Assembly (NCBI GenBank): GCA_003662995.1
Contig: QMZC01000004.1
Coordinates: 1 to 52,168 of the forward strand
Reading direction: 5' to 3'
DNA from: Archaeoglobales archaeon
GTDB lineage: Archaea > Halobacteriota > Archaeoglobi > Archaeoglobales > Archaeoglobaceae
DNA: 52,168 nt
Part shown: piece by piece, positions 1,329 to 37,595 of the stretch
How positions within the stretch are numbered: the stretch's first letter is position 1
How the letters are laid out: each line of letters opens with the position of its first letter
Made by a program: the position numbers and the translations under genes
Notes under the pieces: generated by a model
Seen by the model: only the letters and a program-made list of their open reading frames with translations
What the model was told of the DNA's origin: nothing
Database searches by the model: none

Positions 1329-2744
1329 CTAATAAAACCCGAAATCAATTTCTTGATCTTGAATGTAATTCTTCTTTAACTTCAAGGCAATTTCAGCCTT
1401 CTTTAACTCCCTTCCAAGGTAAGCTGCATGATCCAACCTTGACACGAGGTTGTTGGCTAAAACAGTATCAATAATTTCCTTCGCATTCACACCAACAATG
1501 TTGAGATTTTCATGCTTACATACTATTTTACCATTTACGACCCAAATAATAAAGTCGCCCAACGGATCTCTAATGAACTTTTTATTTTCGACGGCATCAA
1601 CGTAATTTTCGGGCATCGATTGTGTTTCATACTTCACCTTATCCTTAATCGCAAGCAAAGCTAACCCCAAATCCTTCGGTGGACTGTTCCTTACTTTTGC
1701 AGCCTTAGCCATATAAGTGGCTATCCTTAATTCTTTAACACTGCCAATCGTTTTTGGACTTGCTTCAGTCGTGAACAACAAATCAACTCCAATTTCCTCA
1801 GCAATTAAAGCAAGCAGAGCATTTATTCCGACCGAATCAGCATCAACCAACTCTGTAACGTTACCAACACCAAACAGCAAAGGTATTTCGGGATTAATTT
1901 TCCTGAATTTGTAATACCTCAAAATAGACTCTGCAACTCTTAACGGAGCATCCAAAACGGGATCGGCAATAACTTTATCCGTTTTTTCTCTAACCTTCTC
2001 CATCAACTTTATCAGCTTCTCCAAATCCCTCTCAACTACTACGACTGCAACATCTTTGATATAATCCAAAGCCTCGGTATTTCTGTAAGAGATGCTCATG
2101 ACCATGTCCACACCACATTCAACCCCAATTCTAATCGCTTTTGGGTTAAACGTATCAATGCTCAAAGCGTTGCAGTAATCAACTGCTACTTTTACTGCTT
2201 TCTTCAATTCATTAGCATCGAACTCCAAAGGAATCCCCAAATCAATTATATCCGCTCCATTTTGCTTGTAATACTCAATTTTTTGAATCAAGTCATCTTT
2301 GGGTATTATTGCGTTTACAATTTCAGCAACAACTTTCATTCTTCCCCCCACTTTAACGTCACCAATCTTAAAACGATACGTTTCTATTGGATCCACCATA
2401 TCAACAACTTCCTTTGCCTTAACGACATTTAAAAGCCTGCAGGCAGGGATTTTATGGCTAAACTCAATATTTTCAACATTTTCCAAAACGACCTTTAAAT
2501 CGTAGGCATGAATTGGGCCAAGCCTGATTTTTACTCCTTTTTCCCTCTCAAAGCCCTCCCAATCACAATCTTTGGTTAAGCCAGGAACTAAAATTAGGTC
2601 ATAACCATTAAATTCAACGTTTCTTAAATGTGAGGGCGTTATAAAGGCTGCGACGTCTATATCAACAACGTAAACATTAGCATTTTTTGCGTATTTCCTC
2701 ACATCCTTTTCCGCAAGCTTTCCAGTGATTAACAAAATTTTCAT
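1329..2744 (-). CDS. Dihydropteroate synthase-related protein
   Basis: A 471-residue protein resembling the archaeal dihydropteroate synthase-like family of methanogens and Archaeoglobus (MJ0107-type). Residues about 160-350 form the pterin-binding TIM barrel: NGADIIDLGIP corresponds to the conserved strand of DHPS, and ALSIDTFNPKAIRIGVECG to the next one. The N-terminal 150 residues (ITGKLAEKDVRKYAK onward) and the C-terminal 120 residues are specific to the archaeal family. DHPS-like proteins are presumed to act in tetrahydromethanopterin or related pterin synthesis, but the exact reaction of this family is not settled to my knowledge. It stands alone between purA and the Fe-S gene. Confidence 0.8.
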   Translation of the reverse strand: MKILLITGKLAEKDVRKYAKNANVYVVDIDVAAFITPSHLRNVEFNGYDLILVPGLTKDCDWEGFEREKGVKIRLGPIHAYDLKVVLENVENIEFSHKIPACRLLNVVKAKEVVDMVDPIETYRFKIGDVKVGGRMKVVAEIVNAIIPKDDLIQKIEYYKQNGADIIDLGIPLEFDANELKKAVKVAVDYCNALSIDTFNPKAIRIGVECGVDMVMSISYRNTEALDYIKDVAVVVVERDLEKLIKLMEKVREKTDKVIADPVLDAPLRVAESILRYYKFRKINPEIPLLFGVGNVTELVDADSVGINALLALIAEEIGVDLLFTTEASPKTIGSVKELRIATYMAKAAKVRNSPPKDLGLALLAIKDKVKYETQSMPENYVDAVENKKFIRDPLGDFIIWVVNGKIVCKHENLNIVGVNAKEIIDTVLANNLVSRLDHAAYLGRELKKAEIALKLKKNYIQDQEIDFGFY

Positions 2745-2919
2745 GTCTCAGTTTTTGTTCAAAACAAGAAAATCCTTTCGATATCATTTTTGATATTATG
2801 AATGGCTAATGATTTCTAAGAGATAATCAGGAAACGGAGATTCTCGATAGCATTTGCTCTTCAAGTCTAAAGTTCAAGCCATCAATCCAGTTGAAATCTT
2901 TCCGACCAAGAATTTGACT

Positions 2920-4245
<1,326 letters not shown>

Positions 4246-32534: not shown

Positions 32535-33512
32535 TCACCCCTGTTTTGATGTAGTACTAACATACACGAGATTGATTCCATCAAACTGAGCCTTTGGTTT
32601 TCTCATTGCATCCCTCATCCTTACAAGCCTCTTCACACTTCCAGGAACGCTACCGGCAATTAGCACATAATCACTCCTTATTACGCCATAGTGGACAAAA
32701 CCGCCTGCAGGTGTTATCTCCCCATTCTCCCCAATTTTCACTATTCTCTTGTTGTACTCTGTACGCTGGTGGAAACCCATCTGTCCGTACTGCGGAACTG
32801 TCCATCTTACTCTATGGGGATTCCAAGGACCAAGTGTACCAACTCTTCTGTGTTTACTGCTCCTCGCGTGTTTAGCATCTAAGGTTATGACTCCCCATCT
32901 TTTAACAACTCCCTGAAATCCTTTGCCCTTGGTTATTGAGACAACATCAATTATTGCTCCCTCATTAAACACCTCAGAAACCCTAATCTCCTTACCCAAT
33001 TTGTCTAAAGCATACTCTAAAGCCTCTTCAACACTCCCACCAACTTTATTCTCCATTATTTCGGGAACCTTTTTTGGTACACCCGTAATTAGGTAAGGCT
33101 GGGTGTACGTAATCAACCTAACCTCATCAATTCCATCAGCGTTAATCTCCTTATTTTTCACTTTTTTTGGCAAATTAATTTTCCTTGCCAATTGTTTATC
33201 CAAATCCTCACTCCAGATTTCTGCTACAATCTTCAACCCATACTGGGTTTTCTTATAAGCCCTAACACCAGCCACCTTCAGCGGTGGAGTCTCCAACACA
33301 GTTACGGGGACGACCATTTCTTCGCCATAAGTTAGGGAGTTCTTCCTATCATCAATCATTACAACATGGGTCATGCCAGCTTTATAGCCAGCAAAACCCT
33401 GCATTCTAACTTCATTACACTCAGGCCAACTCCTAATTCTGGGAACGATACTCTTAGCTCTCTTTCTCGGCGAGAAAGCTAGGGATCCCCTCCTTGGTCT
33501 GTGAGTCTTCAT
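32535..33512 (-). CDS. rpl3: Ribosomal protein L3
   Basis: A 325-residue uL3 of the archaeal/eukaryotic type. HRPRRGSLAFSPRKRAKSIV at the N-terminus and SITKGKGFQGVVKRWGV near residues 189-205 are the signatures; GTLGPWNPHRVRWTVPQYGQ follows. Its ATG overlaps the stop of the upstream SPOUT methylase gene. Confidence 0.96.
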   Translation of the reverse strand: MKTHRPRRGSLAFSPRKRAKSIVPRIRSWPECNEVRMQGFAGYKAGMTHVVMIDDRKNSLTYGEEMVVPVTVLETPPLKVAGVRAYKKTQYGLKIVAEIWSEDLDKQLARKINLPKKVKNKEINADGIDEVRLITYTQPYLITGVPKKVPEIMENKVGGSVEEALEYALDKLGKEIRVSEVFNEGAIIDVVSITKGKGFQGVVKRWGVITLDAKHARSSKHRRVGTLGPWNPHRVRWTVPQYGQMGFHQRTEYNKRIVKIGENGEITPAGGFVHYGVIRSDYVLIAGSVPGSVKRLVRMRDAMRKPKAQFDGINLVYVSTTSKQG

Positions 33513-34294
33513 CCTTTACCACCCCAATATTTTGCAATATTTATTATCGCTAAGGTTGCGAATATCGCCTCTTCAAGCCTTACAGTTTTACTACCCTGCA
33601 TAGGTACTGTGTTCCAGCACTCTTTGCTTATTTTACTCATTTGAATGCCAAGTCTCTCTGCAATCTCAAAAACCCCATCTTTGGGGTTTCCGAATACCAC
33701 TATTGGGTTGTCAACGCTTTGCCTTATGTCCTCAATGCTTGGCGTTTTGCACCTTCGCGACGTTATCACGACGTTCTCTTTGCTTAAGATGTCCTTCAAT
33801 TCTACCTTTTTTACCTTATACCCCCAGTAGTCTGGAGGCTTAGCTTCTTCTACTACCAACGGGTTCTTCGAACAGACTCTGACGGTCACGCGGGCACCCC
33901 TTTTGTATGTTCCCTCAAGGGGTGCCAAGGGCTTTACACCTATATCGACCCAAGCGTGACCGTCAGTGCAACGCCTTACAACCCCTTCCCTCACTTCATT
34001 GATTTTTAAAGTTTTCGGCTTGTGGGATGGTATTTGTAGTGGTGGCAGTAAACCCACATATTTTAAGGATTTTTTAATTGGGATAATCTCCTTTCTGAGA
34101 TATTGTGGAGTCTCTAAATACTCTAAAATGTCTTTAATAAAGTTTGACTCGTCTAACACTGGGTCTTTATAGATGTAAATTGTTCTAACTCTAAAAATTG
34201 AGGCTGCCCTAGCAATCATCCCAACCTTGTAAGTCTTGATTTTTTCATCCTTCTCGTTTATTAGGGATGAGGATGGTATCGCAATGGAGAGCAT
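33509..34294 (-). CDS. SPOUT-class RNA methylase (COG2106-like)
   Basis: A 261-residue predicted RNA methyltransferase of the archaeal DUF171/COG2106 family, which has an alpha/beta knot with an inserted OB-fold. The N-terminus (SLINEKDEKIKTYKVGMIAR, then RVRTIYIYKD) begins the knot. The OB insertion lies at about 95-160 (VRRCTDGHAWVDIGVKPLAP). The knot end is PIVVFGNPKDGVFEIAERLG near 205-224, the SAM-binding loop. The target is not known from sequence; a rRNA site is likely given the position at the head of the S10 cluster. A TATA-like TTATAAAC about 26 bases before the ATG implies a leaderless transcript for the whole array. Confidence 0.88.
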   Translation of the reverse strand: MLSIAIPSSSLINEKDEKIKTYKVGMIARAASIFRVRTIYIYKDPVLDESNFIKDILEYLETPQYLRKEIIPIKKSLKYVGLLPPLQIPSHKPKTLKINEVREGVVRRCTDGHAWVDIGVKPLAPLEGTYKRGARVTVRVCSKNPLVVEEAKPPDYWGYKVKKVELKDILSKENVVITSRRCKTPSIEDIRQSVDNPIVVFGNPKDGVFEIAERLGIQMSKISKECWNTVPMQGSKTVRLEEAIFATLAIINIAKYWGGKG

Positions 34295-34315
34295 GAGAAT
34301 TGTGATTTTGTTAAT

Positions 34316-34323
34316 GTTTATAA
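34316..34323 (-). promoter_or_regulatory. TATA box for the ribosomal array
   Basis: On the minus strand the sequence reads TTATAAAC, centred about 26 bases before the ATG of the SPOUT methylase, so transcription should start at or near the start codon. No other promoter-sized gap occurs downstream until the end of the 31-gene array. Confidence 0.5.
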
Positions 34324-34378
34324 CTGTAACATTGAATTAATGTTTCTTAGGCTCAAGTTCATCATCACGTATCAATAA

Positions 34379-34387
34379 TTTTAAGTA
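34379..34387 (+). promoter_or_regulatory. TATA-like element for the 616-aa gene
   Basis: TTTAAGTAT is centred about 28 bases before the ATG at 34411. No ribosome binding site is visible between them, so the transcript is probably leaderless. Confidence 0.4.
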
Positions 34388-34410
34388 TGAATTTTTGAAG
34401 AAATAATATT

Positions 34411-36261
34411 ATGCAAAAAGAGAAGGGAAAAAGAGAGGTAAACAAGCCGAGAATAAGGGAAACTAAACACTTCTCTAAAAATAAGAAAGTCAAGGAACAA
34501 AAAGTTTCAGAACAAACAAAAGACAGGTCAACTTCAAAAAATACTGAACCTACAGAACAATTAACCACAGATTTAACGAAAGAGGAAATGTTACGTATTT
34601 TAAGAGAAGAATATGACAGTTTTAGACGTAAAAGTCTCGAATCGCAATCAAATATGCCTGAATATGACCTAACTGATAGTGAAATTAAAGTCCTCGTTCT
34701 ACTTGATATGGTAACATCATCTATAAAACGGGAGAACTTATTTGTTCCAAGTGAAATACCAGTTAAAATAGTAGATAGACATTTGATTGGAGATTTTCTT
34801 GAAATGATTTCTTCAGACTTGCAGATAAGTGAGGATGTAGATAAAATATTAAATCAGTTAGAAGAGCTTGAGTTAATAACAGAGAAGAAGATAGCAAATT
34901 GTTTACTTTCCGTGGAAATAACTGTTGATGGAAAAAAGATAGCTGAAAAATACAAAGACAAATATTTCGAAGAAATTCTGGTAGCTTTGGCAAAATATGT
35001 GGAAGAAGTTGTAGATAGCGATGAACTTGCAAAAAGAATACTGCAAATTTTAGATATAGTTGGTTTATCTACAAAACGAAAGCTTGAAAATTATTTCACC
35101 AACATCAGCACTCAGTTTGAAGACGCAATTTTACTGATCATCTTTTTACTATTTGATGATAAATTTAGAAAACATCATACGATATCTAAAATAACAAGAA
35201 AAATTAGGAAAGACGTTCCTGACAATAAAATGTTAGAGGATTTCTGCAAAGATGATGACTTTTTAAAAGCTTTGGCAATACTTTATATGGACAAAATTTG
35301 GGACAGATTAGGCATAGACTTTGTTATGGAAGACAGCAATCCAAAAATTATAGGGAGTATATATAGTTATCGAACTATTATCCATAAACTTATAGATGAA
35401 AAATGCACCGAAATTTTGAGTAAATTAATTTTACTTGGCGTCTTAGGGAGCGACAAGTACAACATTTTCAAGCTCAACGTAATTGAAGTACTATCCAATA
35501 ATTTAGACCGAATAAAATCATTCTTCAAATTTGATGCCTCTAAAGCCAAGGAAATAATTTCAGAAATGGATGTGGAAATGATAGAAGACTTCCAATTTAA
35601 CCTAGAAGAAACAATTGAACTTATAAAATGCGGTGCATTGATTCCTTACGATGGTGGATTGTACATCAGAAAAGAATTTGAAGAAATGATAAGAGAGAGA
35701 TCACAAGAACATGCTGCCAAAATTGCAGAGGATACTAAAGTTGAAAAACAACCCGAACCCACTCCAGATATCACACCAACCAAAGATGTTGAAATTCCAG
35801 AAGATTTTGAACCATTTAAACTTTTATTTGATTTTGAGGGCAAGACTATAGATTTTGATAATCCATTGGTTATCTGTCTTGAAGAAACACCACATGATAG
35901 CCACATTGGAAGTGTTAGAACAATCTGCAAGTTAATTTACAGAGAAAAAGTTGGTGGACTTCCAGACCCAACTATAATTGAAACAATTGATAAGCCTGAA
36001 GACTTATTCGAGCAAATTAGAGCTGAAGGTAGAATTGTCTCAATTAAATTAAACGAGAAGGAATGGGGTATGTTAACAAAGAAAGATTGGCAAAAACTTT
36101 GGAGCAGAATAAAAGAGTTGTTTGCCCAAGGATTTGGAGTTGTAATCTTCAATAGAAGTTTAACCCAGCTTAGCGAACACATCGTTAACTATATAAATCT
36201 TAAACCACGCGTCTTGCCTGTAGAACTCAAAAAAGAGATTCTAGAGCTATTTTGGGGGTAA
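34411..36261 (+). CDS. Unknown 616-aa winged-helix protein, first gene of accessory cassette
   Basis: I do not recognise a family. Residues 1-60 are a disordered-looking, Lys/Glu/Thr-rich tail. Residues about 88-195 look like a winged helix: YDLTDSEIKVLVLLDMVTSS, then KILNQLEELELITEKKIANC and the wing VEITVDGKKIAEKY. Residues 195-440 are helical repeats with no motif. A proline/charge-rich linker (EKQPEPTPDITPTKDVEIPE) leads to a C-terminal alpha/beta domain of about 160 residues. It has PLVICLEETPHDSHIGS near 489, an LNEKEWGML segment near 550 and GFGVVIFNRSLTQL near 572, recalling nucleotide-binding or Rossmann-like strands. It is unusually rich in Asn, Lys and Ile compared with the genes on either side, suggesting transfer. 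It overlaps the next gene by ten bases. Confidence 0.8.
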   Translation: MQKEKGKREVNKPRIRETKHFSKNKKVKEQKVSEQTKDRSTSKNTEPTEQLTTDLTKEEMLRILREEYDSFRRKSLESQSNMPEYDLTDSEIKVLVLLDMVTSSIKRENLFVPSEIPVKIVDRHLIGDFLEMISSDLQISEDVDKILNQLEELELITEKKIANCLLSVEITVDGKKIAEKYKDKYFEEILVALAKYVEEVVDSDELAKRILQILDIVGLSTKRKLENYFTNISTQFEDAILLIIFLLFDDKFRKHHTISKITRKIRKDVPDNKMLEDFCKDDDFLKALAILYMDKIWDRLGIDFVMEDSNPKIIGSIYSYRTIIHKLIDEKCTEILSKLILLGVLGSDKYNIFKLNVIEVLSNNLDRIKSFFKFDASKAKEIISEMDVEMIEDFQFNLEETIELIKCGALIPYDGGLYIRKEFEEMIRERSQEHAAKIAEDTKVEKQPEPTPDITPTKDVEIPEDFEPFKLLFDFEGKTIDFDNPLVICLEETPHDSHIGSVRTICKLIYREKVGGLPDPTIIETIDKPEDLFEQIRAEGRIVSIKLNEKEWGMLTKKDWQKLWSRIKELFAQGFGVVIFNRSLTQLSEHIVNYINLKPRVLPVELKKEILELFWG

Positions 36262-36902
36262 AAGTTCCAGAAGAAGTACCTGAACAATTTGATTTGCTTT
36301 TTGAAATTGCAAGAATAAAGAAGGAGAAATTACTGAAAAATTTGAAAGAAATAGAGAATGGAATTTATTGGGATGCTACGAAAGCAGATGAAAACGAATC
36401 AGAGTTACATAGACAAATAAAGTCATTTGTAGTTATGTTAATTGTAAAAGAACTCGAAAAAGAAAGTTTAGAGTTAAAAACACCAACAGAGATTGAAGAA
36501 CACATCAAAACTGAGTATTGGGTGTCTGATGATGTCAGAGCAGACATCTATTTTGAAGACGATTCATTGAAAGTTTTCGAAATCGAAACGTTGTTTGCAG
36601 AAGATAGAGGCGGAAAAATTGTTAGAGATAAGCTCCGAGAGACTTTTAAAAAATATGAAAATACGATTGTCGATGAGATAAATATTGTCCTTGATAATTT
36701 CACTTTTGTACGGCATTTAAAAGAGATATTAGGCTTAAAGAAGAATTTTGAAAAAGATTTGAGGGAACAGAAAAATAAGACAATTAATTTTTACACCATA
36801 GACGTTGAAAATGGAAGATTAATACCATTAACTGAGGTTCTAAATAGGGTCAAAACATTGATGCAAAAATTGGATGAGCTACGATTGCAATCTGCTGAAT
36901 AA
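36252..36902 (+). CDS. Candidate PD-(D/E)XK-fold nuclease
   Basis: A 216-residue protein. Residues about 45-125 carry a nuclease-like pattern: an acidic residue on a helix (NESELHRQIKSF near 47), an aspartate starting a strand (DVRADIYFE near 96) and an E-x-E-type strand after a turn (LKVFEIETLF near 108). Helices with Lys/Arg follow. The canonical lysine is replaced by Thr in EIET, as in divergent members, so activity is not certain. A tail of helices spans 125-216. The TTG start at 36252 lies inside the end of the upstream gene; the next gene begins directly at its stop. The arrangement suggests one translated unit of three proteins. Confidence 0.72.
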   Translation: MGVKVPEEVPEQFDLLFEIARIKKEKLLKNLKEIENGIYWDATKADENESELHRQIKSFVVMLIVKELEKESLELKTPTEIEEHIKTEYWVSDDVRADIYFEDDSLKVFEIETLFAEDRGGKIVRDKLRETFKKYENTIVDEINIVLDNFTFVRHLKEILGLKKNFEKDLREQKNKTINFYTIDVENGRLIPLTEVLNRVKTLMQKLDELRLQSAE

Positions 36903-37577
36903 ATGAGGTTCGCAAAAACCCTACTAATAGGATGGAGCGAAACGGGAGCAAAATTGGTGTTGAATGTTGGTGTAGAAGACATTACCAAGGTAATTTTGTA
37001 TGAATGCTCACAAAACACCCTGAAAAAGATTGAGAGGTTGTTAGCTAGAAAATGGGATTTGGTTTTGCTGTGTGGAAGGTTAAGTGAAAAGTGGATCGAA
37101 GTAGTGTCAGTAATCGATGATATTCTATCTACGACTTCACCCCAAACTTTGAGCATAGCCTTTTTTGAAGTGGAAACATATGAAGAACTTCTAAAAAATG
37201 TACACGCAAATCCAATAGTTTTCGACCAAGAATTGATAAGGTTAACTTCCGCCAAGCTTTTAGCCCATGTAATGGATGTTTTTTATGCATTCGGTGATAA
37301 TTTGAAGGAAATAGTGGGGGGTAAAATTGGCATATCTTTCGTTGGCAATTTACTGCCAACAGAGGAACGACAATCGATTTATATACCCTTTCCAATAAAC
37401 ATAAAGTCAATTAAAGACTGGATAATTAACTTCGTTGGTAGTATCGACGCTAAGGACATCGATAAAATTCTATCACGATTGACAACAGACAACTCGAAAT
37501 CTAACATTTACTGGAAAGTAACCCCAGAGATAGATACAACAGACGAAATCAGAATTGTCGGTGTAGCTTTCGTGTGA
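36903..37577 (+). CDS. Unknown 224-aa protein, third gene of accessory cassette
   Basis: An alpha/beta protein with no recognised family. It starts with hydrophobic strands (KTLLIGWSETGAKLVLNVGV). Further strands lie near residues 50-60 (WDLVLLCGRLSEKW), 77-91 (SIAFFEVETYEELL) and 138-150 (GKIGISFVGNLLP). It ends in a strand (IRIVGVAFV). The start is clear: ATG follows the TAA of the nuclease-like gene without a gap. It has no membrane segment or metal-binding cluster. The gap to the VapBC pair is 66 bases and carries its own promoter and operator, so this is probably the last gene of the cassette. Confidence 0.7.
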   Translation: MRFAKTLLIGWSETGAKLVLNVGVEDITKVILYECSQNTLKKIERLLARKWDLVLLCGRLSEKWIEVVSVIDDILSTTSPQTLSIAFFEVETYEELLKNVHANPIVFDQELIRLTSAKLLAHVMDVFYAFGDNLKEIVGGKIGISFVGNLLPTEERQSIYIPFPINIKSIKDWIINFVGSIDAKDIDKILSRLTTDNSKSNIYWKVTPEIDTTDEIRIVGVAFV

Positions 37578-37595
37578 TAATCTTACTAAAATCAT

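What the first reader, a model, noticed from the sequence alone, without database searches (positions are those of the whole stretch)
34411..37577. Three-gene cassette of unrecognised proteins with a nuclease-like member
A 616-aa winged-helix protein with a C-terminal alpha/beta domain, a 216-aa protein with a PD-(D/E)XK-like pattern (ESELH, DVRADIYF, FEIET) and a 224-aa alpha/beta protein are packed with a 10-base overlap and a stop-ATG abutment. They behave as one translation unit. They lie between the ribosomal array and aIF2-gamma, are followed by VapBC and a gene remnant, and are richer in Asn, Lys and Ile than the flanks. A DNA-reading regulator, a nuclease and an accessory protein is a typical build for a defence or element-maintenance module. 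I match the set to no named system.
Basis: partly seen in the sequence, partly recalled or inferred. Interest (0 to 1): 0.65.

Follow-up and report, generated by a model that had tools for sequence, protein, structure and literature searches.

The report
Frameshifted archaeal defence-like nuclease gene
The 'three-gene cassette' is one large horizontally acquired archaeal nuclease gene, cut in two by a single-base frameshift, plus an orphan gene; its uncatalogued relatives are scattered through archaea and often sit beside or inside known antiviral systems, so it is probably an antiviral effector.

Summary
The ORFs are real, but the count is not. Genes 1 and 2 are one gene in relatives. Reading across the TTTTGGGGG run at 36250-36258 joins them into about 830 aa that align almost without a gap to fused homologues (E 6e-78, 41%). 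The protein is: W domain (helical, probably winged-helix at its start); MID, an alpha/beta domain resembling AAA+ ATPases without a Walker motif; and NUC, with a PD-(D/E)XK layout and invariant E, D and ExE. Gene 3 is an orphan: the only other copy found is a decayed one in the same genome. The unit is a 3.3-kb, AT-rich insertion absent from a sister species that keeps vapBC, so VapBC is not part of it.

MID-NUC homologues match no Pfam, PADLOC or NCBIfam model. They are patchy in Archaeoglobi, Methanomicrobia, Halobacteria, Lokiarchaeota and Thaumarchaeota, with a tree that does not follow species. Partner genes X/Y precede most; a haloarchaeal branch is a fixed X'-Z'-AAA+ operon. Several loci lie inside a BREX operon or beside viperin, short Argonaute, Tiamat-like or Azaca-like genes.

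Best reading: an uncatalogued archaeal anti-invader nuclease module, regulated by a pseudo-AAA+ domain and a variable sensor. Whether the split window copy works is unknown.

The parts
34286..37594 (+). whole inserted unit: about 3.3 kb present here and absent from the sister species G021
   Evidence: G021 aligns at 94.6% up to window 34285 and at 92.1% again from 37595; about 91 bp lie between in G021
34411..36261 (+). ORF 1, 616 aa: Lys-rich N-terminus, W domain, linker, MID domain; N-terminal part of a single ancestral gene
34660..35730 (+). W domain (about residues 84-440): helical, winged-helix-like at its start by eye; residues 258-429 match a 1403-aa Halorussus plasmid protein that also carries MID and NUC
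   Evidence: pairwise blastp E 1.8e-6
35812..36258 (+). MID domain (about residues 468-616): alpha/beta, AAA+/STAND-like without Walker motif
   Evidence: family model pLDDT 88.8, Foldseek to AAA+; no GxxxxGK[ST]
36250..36258 (+). frameshift site TTTTGGGGG followed by TAA; ORF 2 lies in the -1 frame of ORF 1 and a -1 shift here joins them
36252..36902 (+). ORF 2, 216 aa: NUC domain, PD-(D/E)XK layout; E50SELH, H53, K57, E88, D98, E110-x-E112
36903..37577 (+). ORF 3, 224-aa orphan alpha/beta protein; FtsZ-like only by eye, unconfirmed

Best explanation
Genes 1 and 2 are the two halves of one horizontally acquired gene for a W-MID-NUC protein, an uncatalogued archaeal effector nuclease that most likely defends against viruses or plasmids. 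Proposed mechanism: the C-terminal PD-(D/E)XK-type domain cuts nucleic acid. The central AAA+/STAND-like domain, which has lost its ATP-binding motif, holds it in check and transmits a trigger. The variable N-terminal or partner module (W here; X, Y or both in relatives) senses the invader or binds DNA. In this genome a one-base shift at a T4G5 run, exactly at the MID/NUC linker, splits the protein. The halves may work as two subunits, may be rejoined at low level by -1 slippage on GGG before the stop, or may mark recent inactivation or an assembly error. Gene 3 is a passenger or a lineage-specific partner. Shown: gene split, fusion in relatives, a confidently predicted model of the MID-NUC pair, motif conservation, an insertion with an empty site, patchy distribution, and defence neighbours of relatives. 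Inferred: nuclease activity, autoinhibition, sensing and the antiviral role.
For: Fusion: joined window reading against L041/L040, E 5.7e-78 and 2.3e-76, 41-42% identity over about 345 aa, with a single gap residue at the junction. One-gene form in most intact homologues. Halorussus W+MID+NUC in one 1403-aa protein. Nuclease: invariant E, D and ExE plus near-invariant H and K; alpha-beta-beta-beta-alpha-beta order in a model with pLDDT 88.8 and pTM 0.89. MID: Foldseek best matches are AAA+ proteins (RFC small subunit 1iqp prob 0.97, E 1.2e-3); no Walker A. Foreign and mobile: low G+C, empty site, 17 of 247 phylum genomes, 17 of 294 Halobacteria, Archaeoglobi rows need four changes on the tree, three forced by strongly supported branches. 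Defence context: inside brxC-Y-Z-pglX in two haloarchaeal genera; pVip plus TPR plus DrmMI/IIG-like in Methanomicrobiales; short pAgo plus Aga_REase in a Lokiarchaeon and in haloarchaeon G070; TmtA next to X'-Z'-AAA+ in G070 and a relative of it in G275; ZacB-like PLD beside the Halorussus protein; NERD in a Thaumarchaeon.
Against: No activity data. In the window itself and in several relatives (e.g. L024) the neighbours are housekeeping genes. The rate of defence neighbours expected by chance was not measured. The nuclease fold assignment rests on motif and strand order: Foldseek hits were to AAA+, not to a nuclease, and no PDB sequence matched. The MID match to AAA+ has low overall TM-scores (0.2-0.3). 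W was not folded. The Halorussus W match is E 1.8e-6 in one pairwise comparison.
Confidence: 0.66

Rival explanations
1. A decaying or dead locus: the gene came in by transfer, lost its function by the frameshift, and what is left is a pseudogene with a passenger ORF.
For: One-base break in a gene fused in nearly all relatives; other Archaeoglobi copies are also broken (G034 with stops; G040 split inside NUC); a second gene-3 copy in the same genome is decayed with five stops.
Against: Both halves are otherwise fully open with all conserved residues intact. The break falls in the short linker between two domains, where a functional split is easiest. An assembly error in a fragmented assembly (187 contigs) is also possible.
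Confidence: 0.3
2. A maintenance or accessory gene of integrated plasmid-like elements rather than host defence: the nuclease acts in element processing or competition between elements.
For: One homologue lies on a Halorussus plasmid; the unit behaves as a discrete insertion.
Against: No integrase, replication or partition gene in the inserted 3.3 kb. No match in viral contigs, phage records or other plasmids. Several relatives sit in chromosomal defence operons.
Confidence: 0.12
3. A vertically inherited housekeeping DNA-repair or replication nuclease, with the AAA+-like domain as remnant of a loader.
For: MID resembles clamp-loader AAA+ domains by Foldseek; PD-(D/E)XK nucleases are common in repair.
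Against: Present in a minority of genomes of every group sampled; tree does not follow species; absent from the sister species.
Confidence: 0.03
4. Gene 3 is a divergent FtsZ/tubulin-like protein working with the nuclease, for example arresting division on infection.
For: By eye, the C-terminal NIYWKVTPEIDTTDEIRIVGV resembles the FtsZ C-terminal signature, and the predicted strand/helix order is compatible. The decayed second copy lies near a short FtsZ-like ORF.
Against: No Pfam hit, no hhalign support against the genome's own FtsZ proteins, model pLDDT 48.6 and no PDB match; no intact homologue found elsewhere.
Confidence: 0.08

Closest known systems
PD-(D/E)XK (restriction-endonuclease-like) superfamily, BamHI-type D...ExE active site (BamHI comparison from own knowledge)
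   Same: predicted alpha-beta-beta-beta-alpha-beta core; invariant E88, D98, E110-x-E112 in P0002 numbering, with conserved H53 and K57
   Different: no sequence match to any Pfam, PADLOC, NCBIfam or PDB entry above cut-off; the usual catalytic lysine position is a glutamate
Inactive STAND/AAA+ (iSTAND) sensor domains fused to or paired with nucleases, as BrxB, the PglW C-terminus and Type-4 PglZ (PMC12839542), and iSTAND ternary systems (PMC7159879)
   Same: alpha/beta P-loop-like domain without Walker motifs, coupled to a nuclease effector, with wHTH-like or helical partners
   Different: no detectable sequence similarity to BrxB; different effector; no MoxR or vWA partner
BREX (haloarchaeal brxB-brxC-pglX-pglZ clusters)
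   Same: Y-Z pair is embedded between brxC and pglX in Haloarcula and Halorubrum
   Different: adjacent to BrxC in only 3 of 44 BrxC-bearing haloarchaeal genomes, and most Z genes have no BREX: an accessory, not a core part
Azaca (ZacABC)
   Same: the Halorussus W-MID-NUC gene follows a ZacB-like PLD gene (E 6e-17) and a weakly ZacA-like gene (E 0.0018)
   Different: the nuclease itself matches no Zac model, and the window has no ZacA or ZacB
IetAS / AAA+ defence ATPases and Tiamat (TmtA)
   Same: haloarchaeal Z' branch is a fixed X'-Z'-AAA+ operon with an IetA-like ATPase (E about 1e-20), next to TmtA in G070 (E 3e-63) and a TmtA relative in G275
   Different: no protease seen beside it; the window locus has no AAA+ gene in the insert

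Membership tests
PD-(D/E)XK nuclease superfamily | conserved acidic residues on consecutive strands (D...(D/E)xK or variant) | tested here: met
   E88, D98, E110, E112 invariant in A1 and again in A4 with more rows; variant ExE, not ExK
PD-(D/E)XK nuclease superfamily | alpha-beta-beta-beta-alpha-beta core fold | tested here: inconclusive
   secondary-structure order fits in a confident model, but Foldseek listed AAA+ proteins, not nucleases
PD-(D/E)XK nuclease superfamily | metal-dependent nucleic-acid cleavage | not testable with these tools
   needs biochemistry
AAA+/iSTAND domain (MID) | five-stranded alpha/beta/alpha P-loop-type core | tested here: inconclusive
   five predicted strands; Foldseek best hits all AAA+ (prob up to 0.97) but TM 0.2-0.3 overall; hhalign to the Z'-linked AAA+ is in register but E 0.028
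AAA+/iSTAND domain (MID) | loss of Walker motifs (inactive form) | tested here: met
   no GxxxxGK[ST] in P0001 or in the MID-NUC family model sequence
BREX | BrxC/PglY, PglZ and PglX core genes | tested here: not met
   no PADLOC match for the insert genes or vapBC at a convincing level; flanks are ribosomal and aIF2-gamma genes. Some relatives are embedded in BREX, the window copy is not
Azaca | ZacA, ZacB and ZacC genes together | tested here: not met
   no Zac match in the insert; ZacB-like neighbour only in the Halorussus plasmid
MoxR-vWA-iSTAND ternary systems | MoxR AAA+ and vWA genes adjacent | tested here: not met
   no such match among the insert genes and vapBC
VapBC toxin-antitoxin as part of the module | present with the module and absent without it | tested here: not met
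   sister species keeps vapBC without the insert

The most novel reading that the evidence does not exclude
An uncatalogued archaea-wide class of defence system: a pseudo-AAA+ (MID) plus ExE-type nuclease effector with interchangeable sensor modules (W, X, Y), in one branch driven by its own AAA+ ATPase (X'-Z'-AAA+ operon), and used as an add-on inside BREX operons and defence islands from Lokiarchaeota to Halobacteria.
Probability: 0.45. Interest if true: 0.66.

Novelty: new variant of a known kind. Interest (0 to 1): 0.5.

Why it matters
A 2026 survey of 7,747 archaeal genomes (PMC12988326) finds that nearly a third have no known defence system beyond CRISPR and restriction-modification, and suspects that archaea-specific systems are missed by tools built on bacteria. 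This family fits that gap. It has no model in Pfam, PADLOC or NCBIfam, spans several archaeal phyla, and sits beside or inside known systems. Intact haloarchaeal versions (X'-Z'-AAA+ operon; brxC-Y-Z-pglX) are in a group with genetically tractable hosts and viruses, so the idea can be tested directly.

Tried and rejected
Pfam, PADLOC, NCBIfam and PHROGs on the three ORFs: nothing convincing. PDB sequence search: nothing for ORF 1, ORF 2 or the family profile. Viral contigs, phage records and plasmids: no relatives apart from one Halorussus plasmid. W as a homologue of X or Y: no hhalign support. MID as BrxB: no support. Gene 3 as FtsZ-like: not supported by hhalign; single-sequence model too poor to use. 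Canonical -1 slippery heptamer at the junction: not present; only a single-tRNA slip on GGG before the stop is possible (read from the sequence). BREX core membership: rejected by the haloarchaeal survey.

Full report
1. What is in the window. The three ORFs exist as described: 34411-36261 (616 aa), 36252-36902 (216 aa, TTG start, 10-base overlap) and 36903-37577 (224 aa, ATG right after the preceding TAA). None matches Pfam, PADLOC, NCBIfam or PHROGs at a convincing level.

2. Two ORFs, one gene. Searching whole genomes with ORF 2 finds homologues mostly as the C-terminal part of a single protein of about 600 aa whose middle part is the C-terminus of ORF 1. ORF 2 lies in the -1 frame of ORF 1. 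Read through the run TTTTGGGGG (36250-36258), the joined protein aligns to fused homologues from a Methanomicrobia archaeon and Methanolliviera over about 345 aa at 41-42% identity (E 2e-76 and 6e-78), with one gap residue at the junction LFWG|VKVPEE against VWG|SVKTEE. A Halorussus plasmid encodes all three parts in one 1403-aa protein: a stretch matching ORF 1 residues 258-429 (E 1.8e-6), MID (E 1.6e-8) and NUC (E 8.5e-5). The window therefore carries a W-MID-NUC gene split by a one-base frameshift. The break is in the linker between two domains, so a working two-subunit form is possible. So are slippage, recent inactivation and an assembly error; nothing here separates them.

3. Domains. 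An AlphaFold2 model of MID-NUC from the close homologue L041, with 18 aligned rows including the window ORFs, has mean pLDDT 88.8 and pTM 0.89. NUC shows the strand-helix order of PD-(D/E)XK enzymes, with invariant E, D and ExE and near-invariant H and K; all are intact in the window. Foldseek against PDB gives AAA+ ATPases as best hits (RFC small subunit, NSF, ORC; prob up to 0.97, E down to 2e-4, TM only 0.2-0.3). With the absence of a Walker A motif, I read MID as a degenerate AAA+/STAND-like domain. This is moderate evidence. W begins with a stretch that looks like a winged helix by eye; it was not folded.

4. A discrete insertion. In G021, a sister species whose adjoining ribosome-side gene product (window 33509-34294) is 95% identical, the DNA aligns up to 34285 and again from 37595, with about 91 bp between. 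The 3.3-kb unit 34286-37594, genes 1-3, is thus an insertion here or a deletion there. VapBC stays in the sister at 92% identity and is independent. G+C of ORFs 1 and 2 is 0.32-0.33 (GC3 0.28), against 0.42-0.44 in the ribosomal flank; gene 3 is 0.375.

5. Distribution. ORF 2 homologues occur in 17 of 247 genomes of the phylum. The MID-NUC profile hits 17 of 294 Halobacteria. A contig scan adds Methanomicrobia, Methanolliviera, Lokiarchaeota, a Thaumarchaeon, Halorubrum and Haloarcula. No viral contig or phage record matched. In a 27-row tree the Archaeoglobi rows need four changes, three of them forced by strongly supported branches, and the Asgard/Thaum rows need three. This points to horizontal spread.

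6. Partners. Upstream of most intact copies lies X (about 400 aa), Y (about 210 aa) or both; X and Y share a module by profile comparison (E 1.4e-10). Two haloarchaea have membrane protein-X-X-Z. Eight haloarchaea have a distant branch Z' (MID E 1.7e-11, NUC E 1.9e-10 to the main family) in a fixed operon X'-Z'-AAA+ ATPase (Pfam AAA E about 1e-30; IetA-like in PADLOC).

7. Defence context of relatives. Y-Z lies between brxC and pglX in Haloarcula (G147, G417) and Halorubrum (G498; L047 is the same contig), but Z adjoins BrxC in only 3 of 44 BrxC genomes, so it is an add-on. Two Methanomicrobiales loci carry viperin (pVip E 1e-77), a PADLOC TPR protein and a DrmMI/type IIG-like gene. A Lokiarchaeon and haloarchaeon G070 carry short pAgo with Aga_REase. 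G070 has TmtA directly upstream of X'-Z'-AAA+ (E 3e-63) and G275 a TmtA relative (E 2e-40). Halorussus has a ZacB-like PLD gene (E 6e-17), and a Thaumarchaeon a NERD nuclease. Other loci, the window included, have housekeeping neighbours. I did not measure the background rate.

8. Gene 3. One other copy was found: a decayed one in the same genome (contig C27, about 2571-3027, with stops) near a short FtsZ-like ORF, VapBC and what look by eye like Cas6 and other CRISPR accessory genes. No intact homologue was found in 295 phylum genomes, viral contigs or plasmids. A resemblance to the FtsZ C-terminus is by eye only and was not supported by hhalign or by the poor model. Nothing ties it to the nuclease except position.

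9. Reading. The family most likely provides an effector nuclease held by a pseudo-AAA+ domain and triggered through a variable sensor (W, X or Y). This parallels the inactive-STAND-plus-nuclease couples described in BREX (PMC12839542) and related conflict systems (PMC7159879), but I found no sequence link to them. Activity, trigger and role are inferred. Novelty: known folds in an uncatalogued combination, hence a new variant of a known kind. A 2026 archaeal survey (PMC12988326) states that such archaea-specific systems are probably under-detected.

Noticed in passing
L146-L153 (G430, G070, G275, G482, G539, G214, G389, G467): A conserved three-gene haloarchaeal operon X'(about 370 aa)-Z'(about 620 aa, MID-NUC)-AAA+ ATPase; in G070 and G275 it lies beside a TmtA-like protein (2008 and 1894 aa). 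No family model found for X' or Z'. A good candidate defence system in tractable hosts.
   Followed up: partly
L030 10074-10853: A 20S-proteasome-like Ntn-hydrolase gene (Pfam Proteasome E 4.5e-17) directly follows the Z gene in G186.
   Followed up: no
L054 (window genome contig C27) 1467-3027: A 158-aa FtsZ-like ORF followed by a decayed copy of window gene 3, beside what look like Cas6 and CRISPR accessory genes and a VapBC pair.
   Followed up: partly
L143 11984-15199 and L145 11642-14851: A roughly 1070-aa putative membrane protein without Pfam match upstream of X-X-Z in two haloarchaeal families, 93% identical: suggests recent transfer of the whole unit.
   Followed up: no
L028 9949-10628 versus L140 6973-7653: The Y gene inside the BREX cluster is split into two ORFs in Haloarcula G147 but intact in its relative G417.
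   Followed up: no
L044: A contig labelled Clostridiaceae MAG carries the Methanomicrobiales-type X-Z pair (very short branch to L043, L026 and L027); probably a binning contaminant.
   Followed up: no
L034 7222-9492: In Archaeoglobi genome G017 the X-Z pair lies directly before a ribosomal S15-like gene, much as the window copy lies beside the ribosomal array.
   Followed up: no
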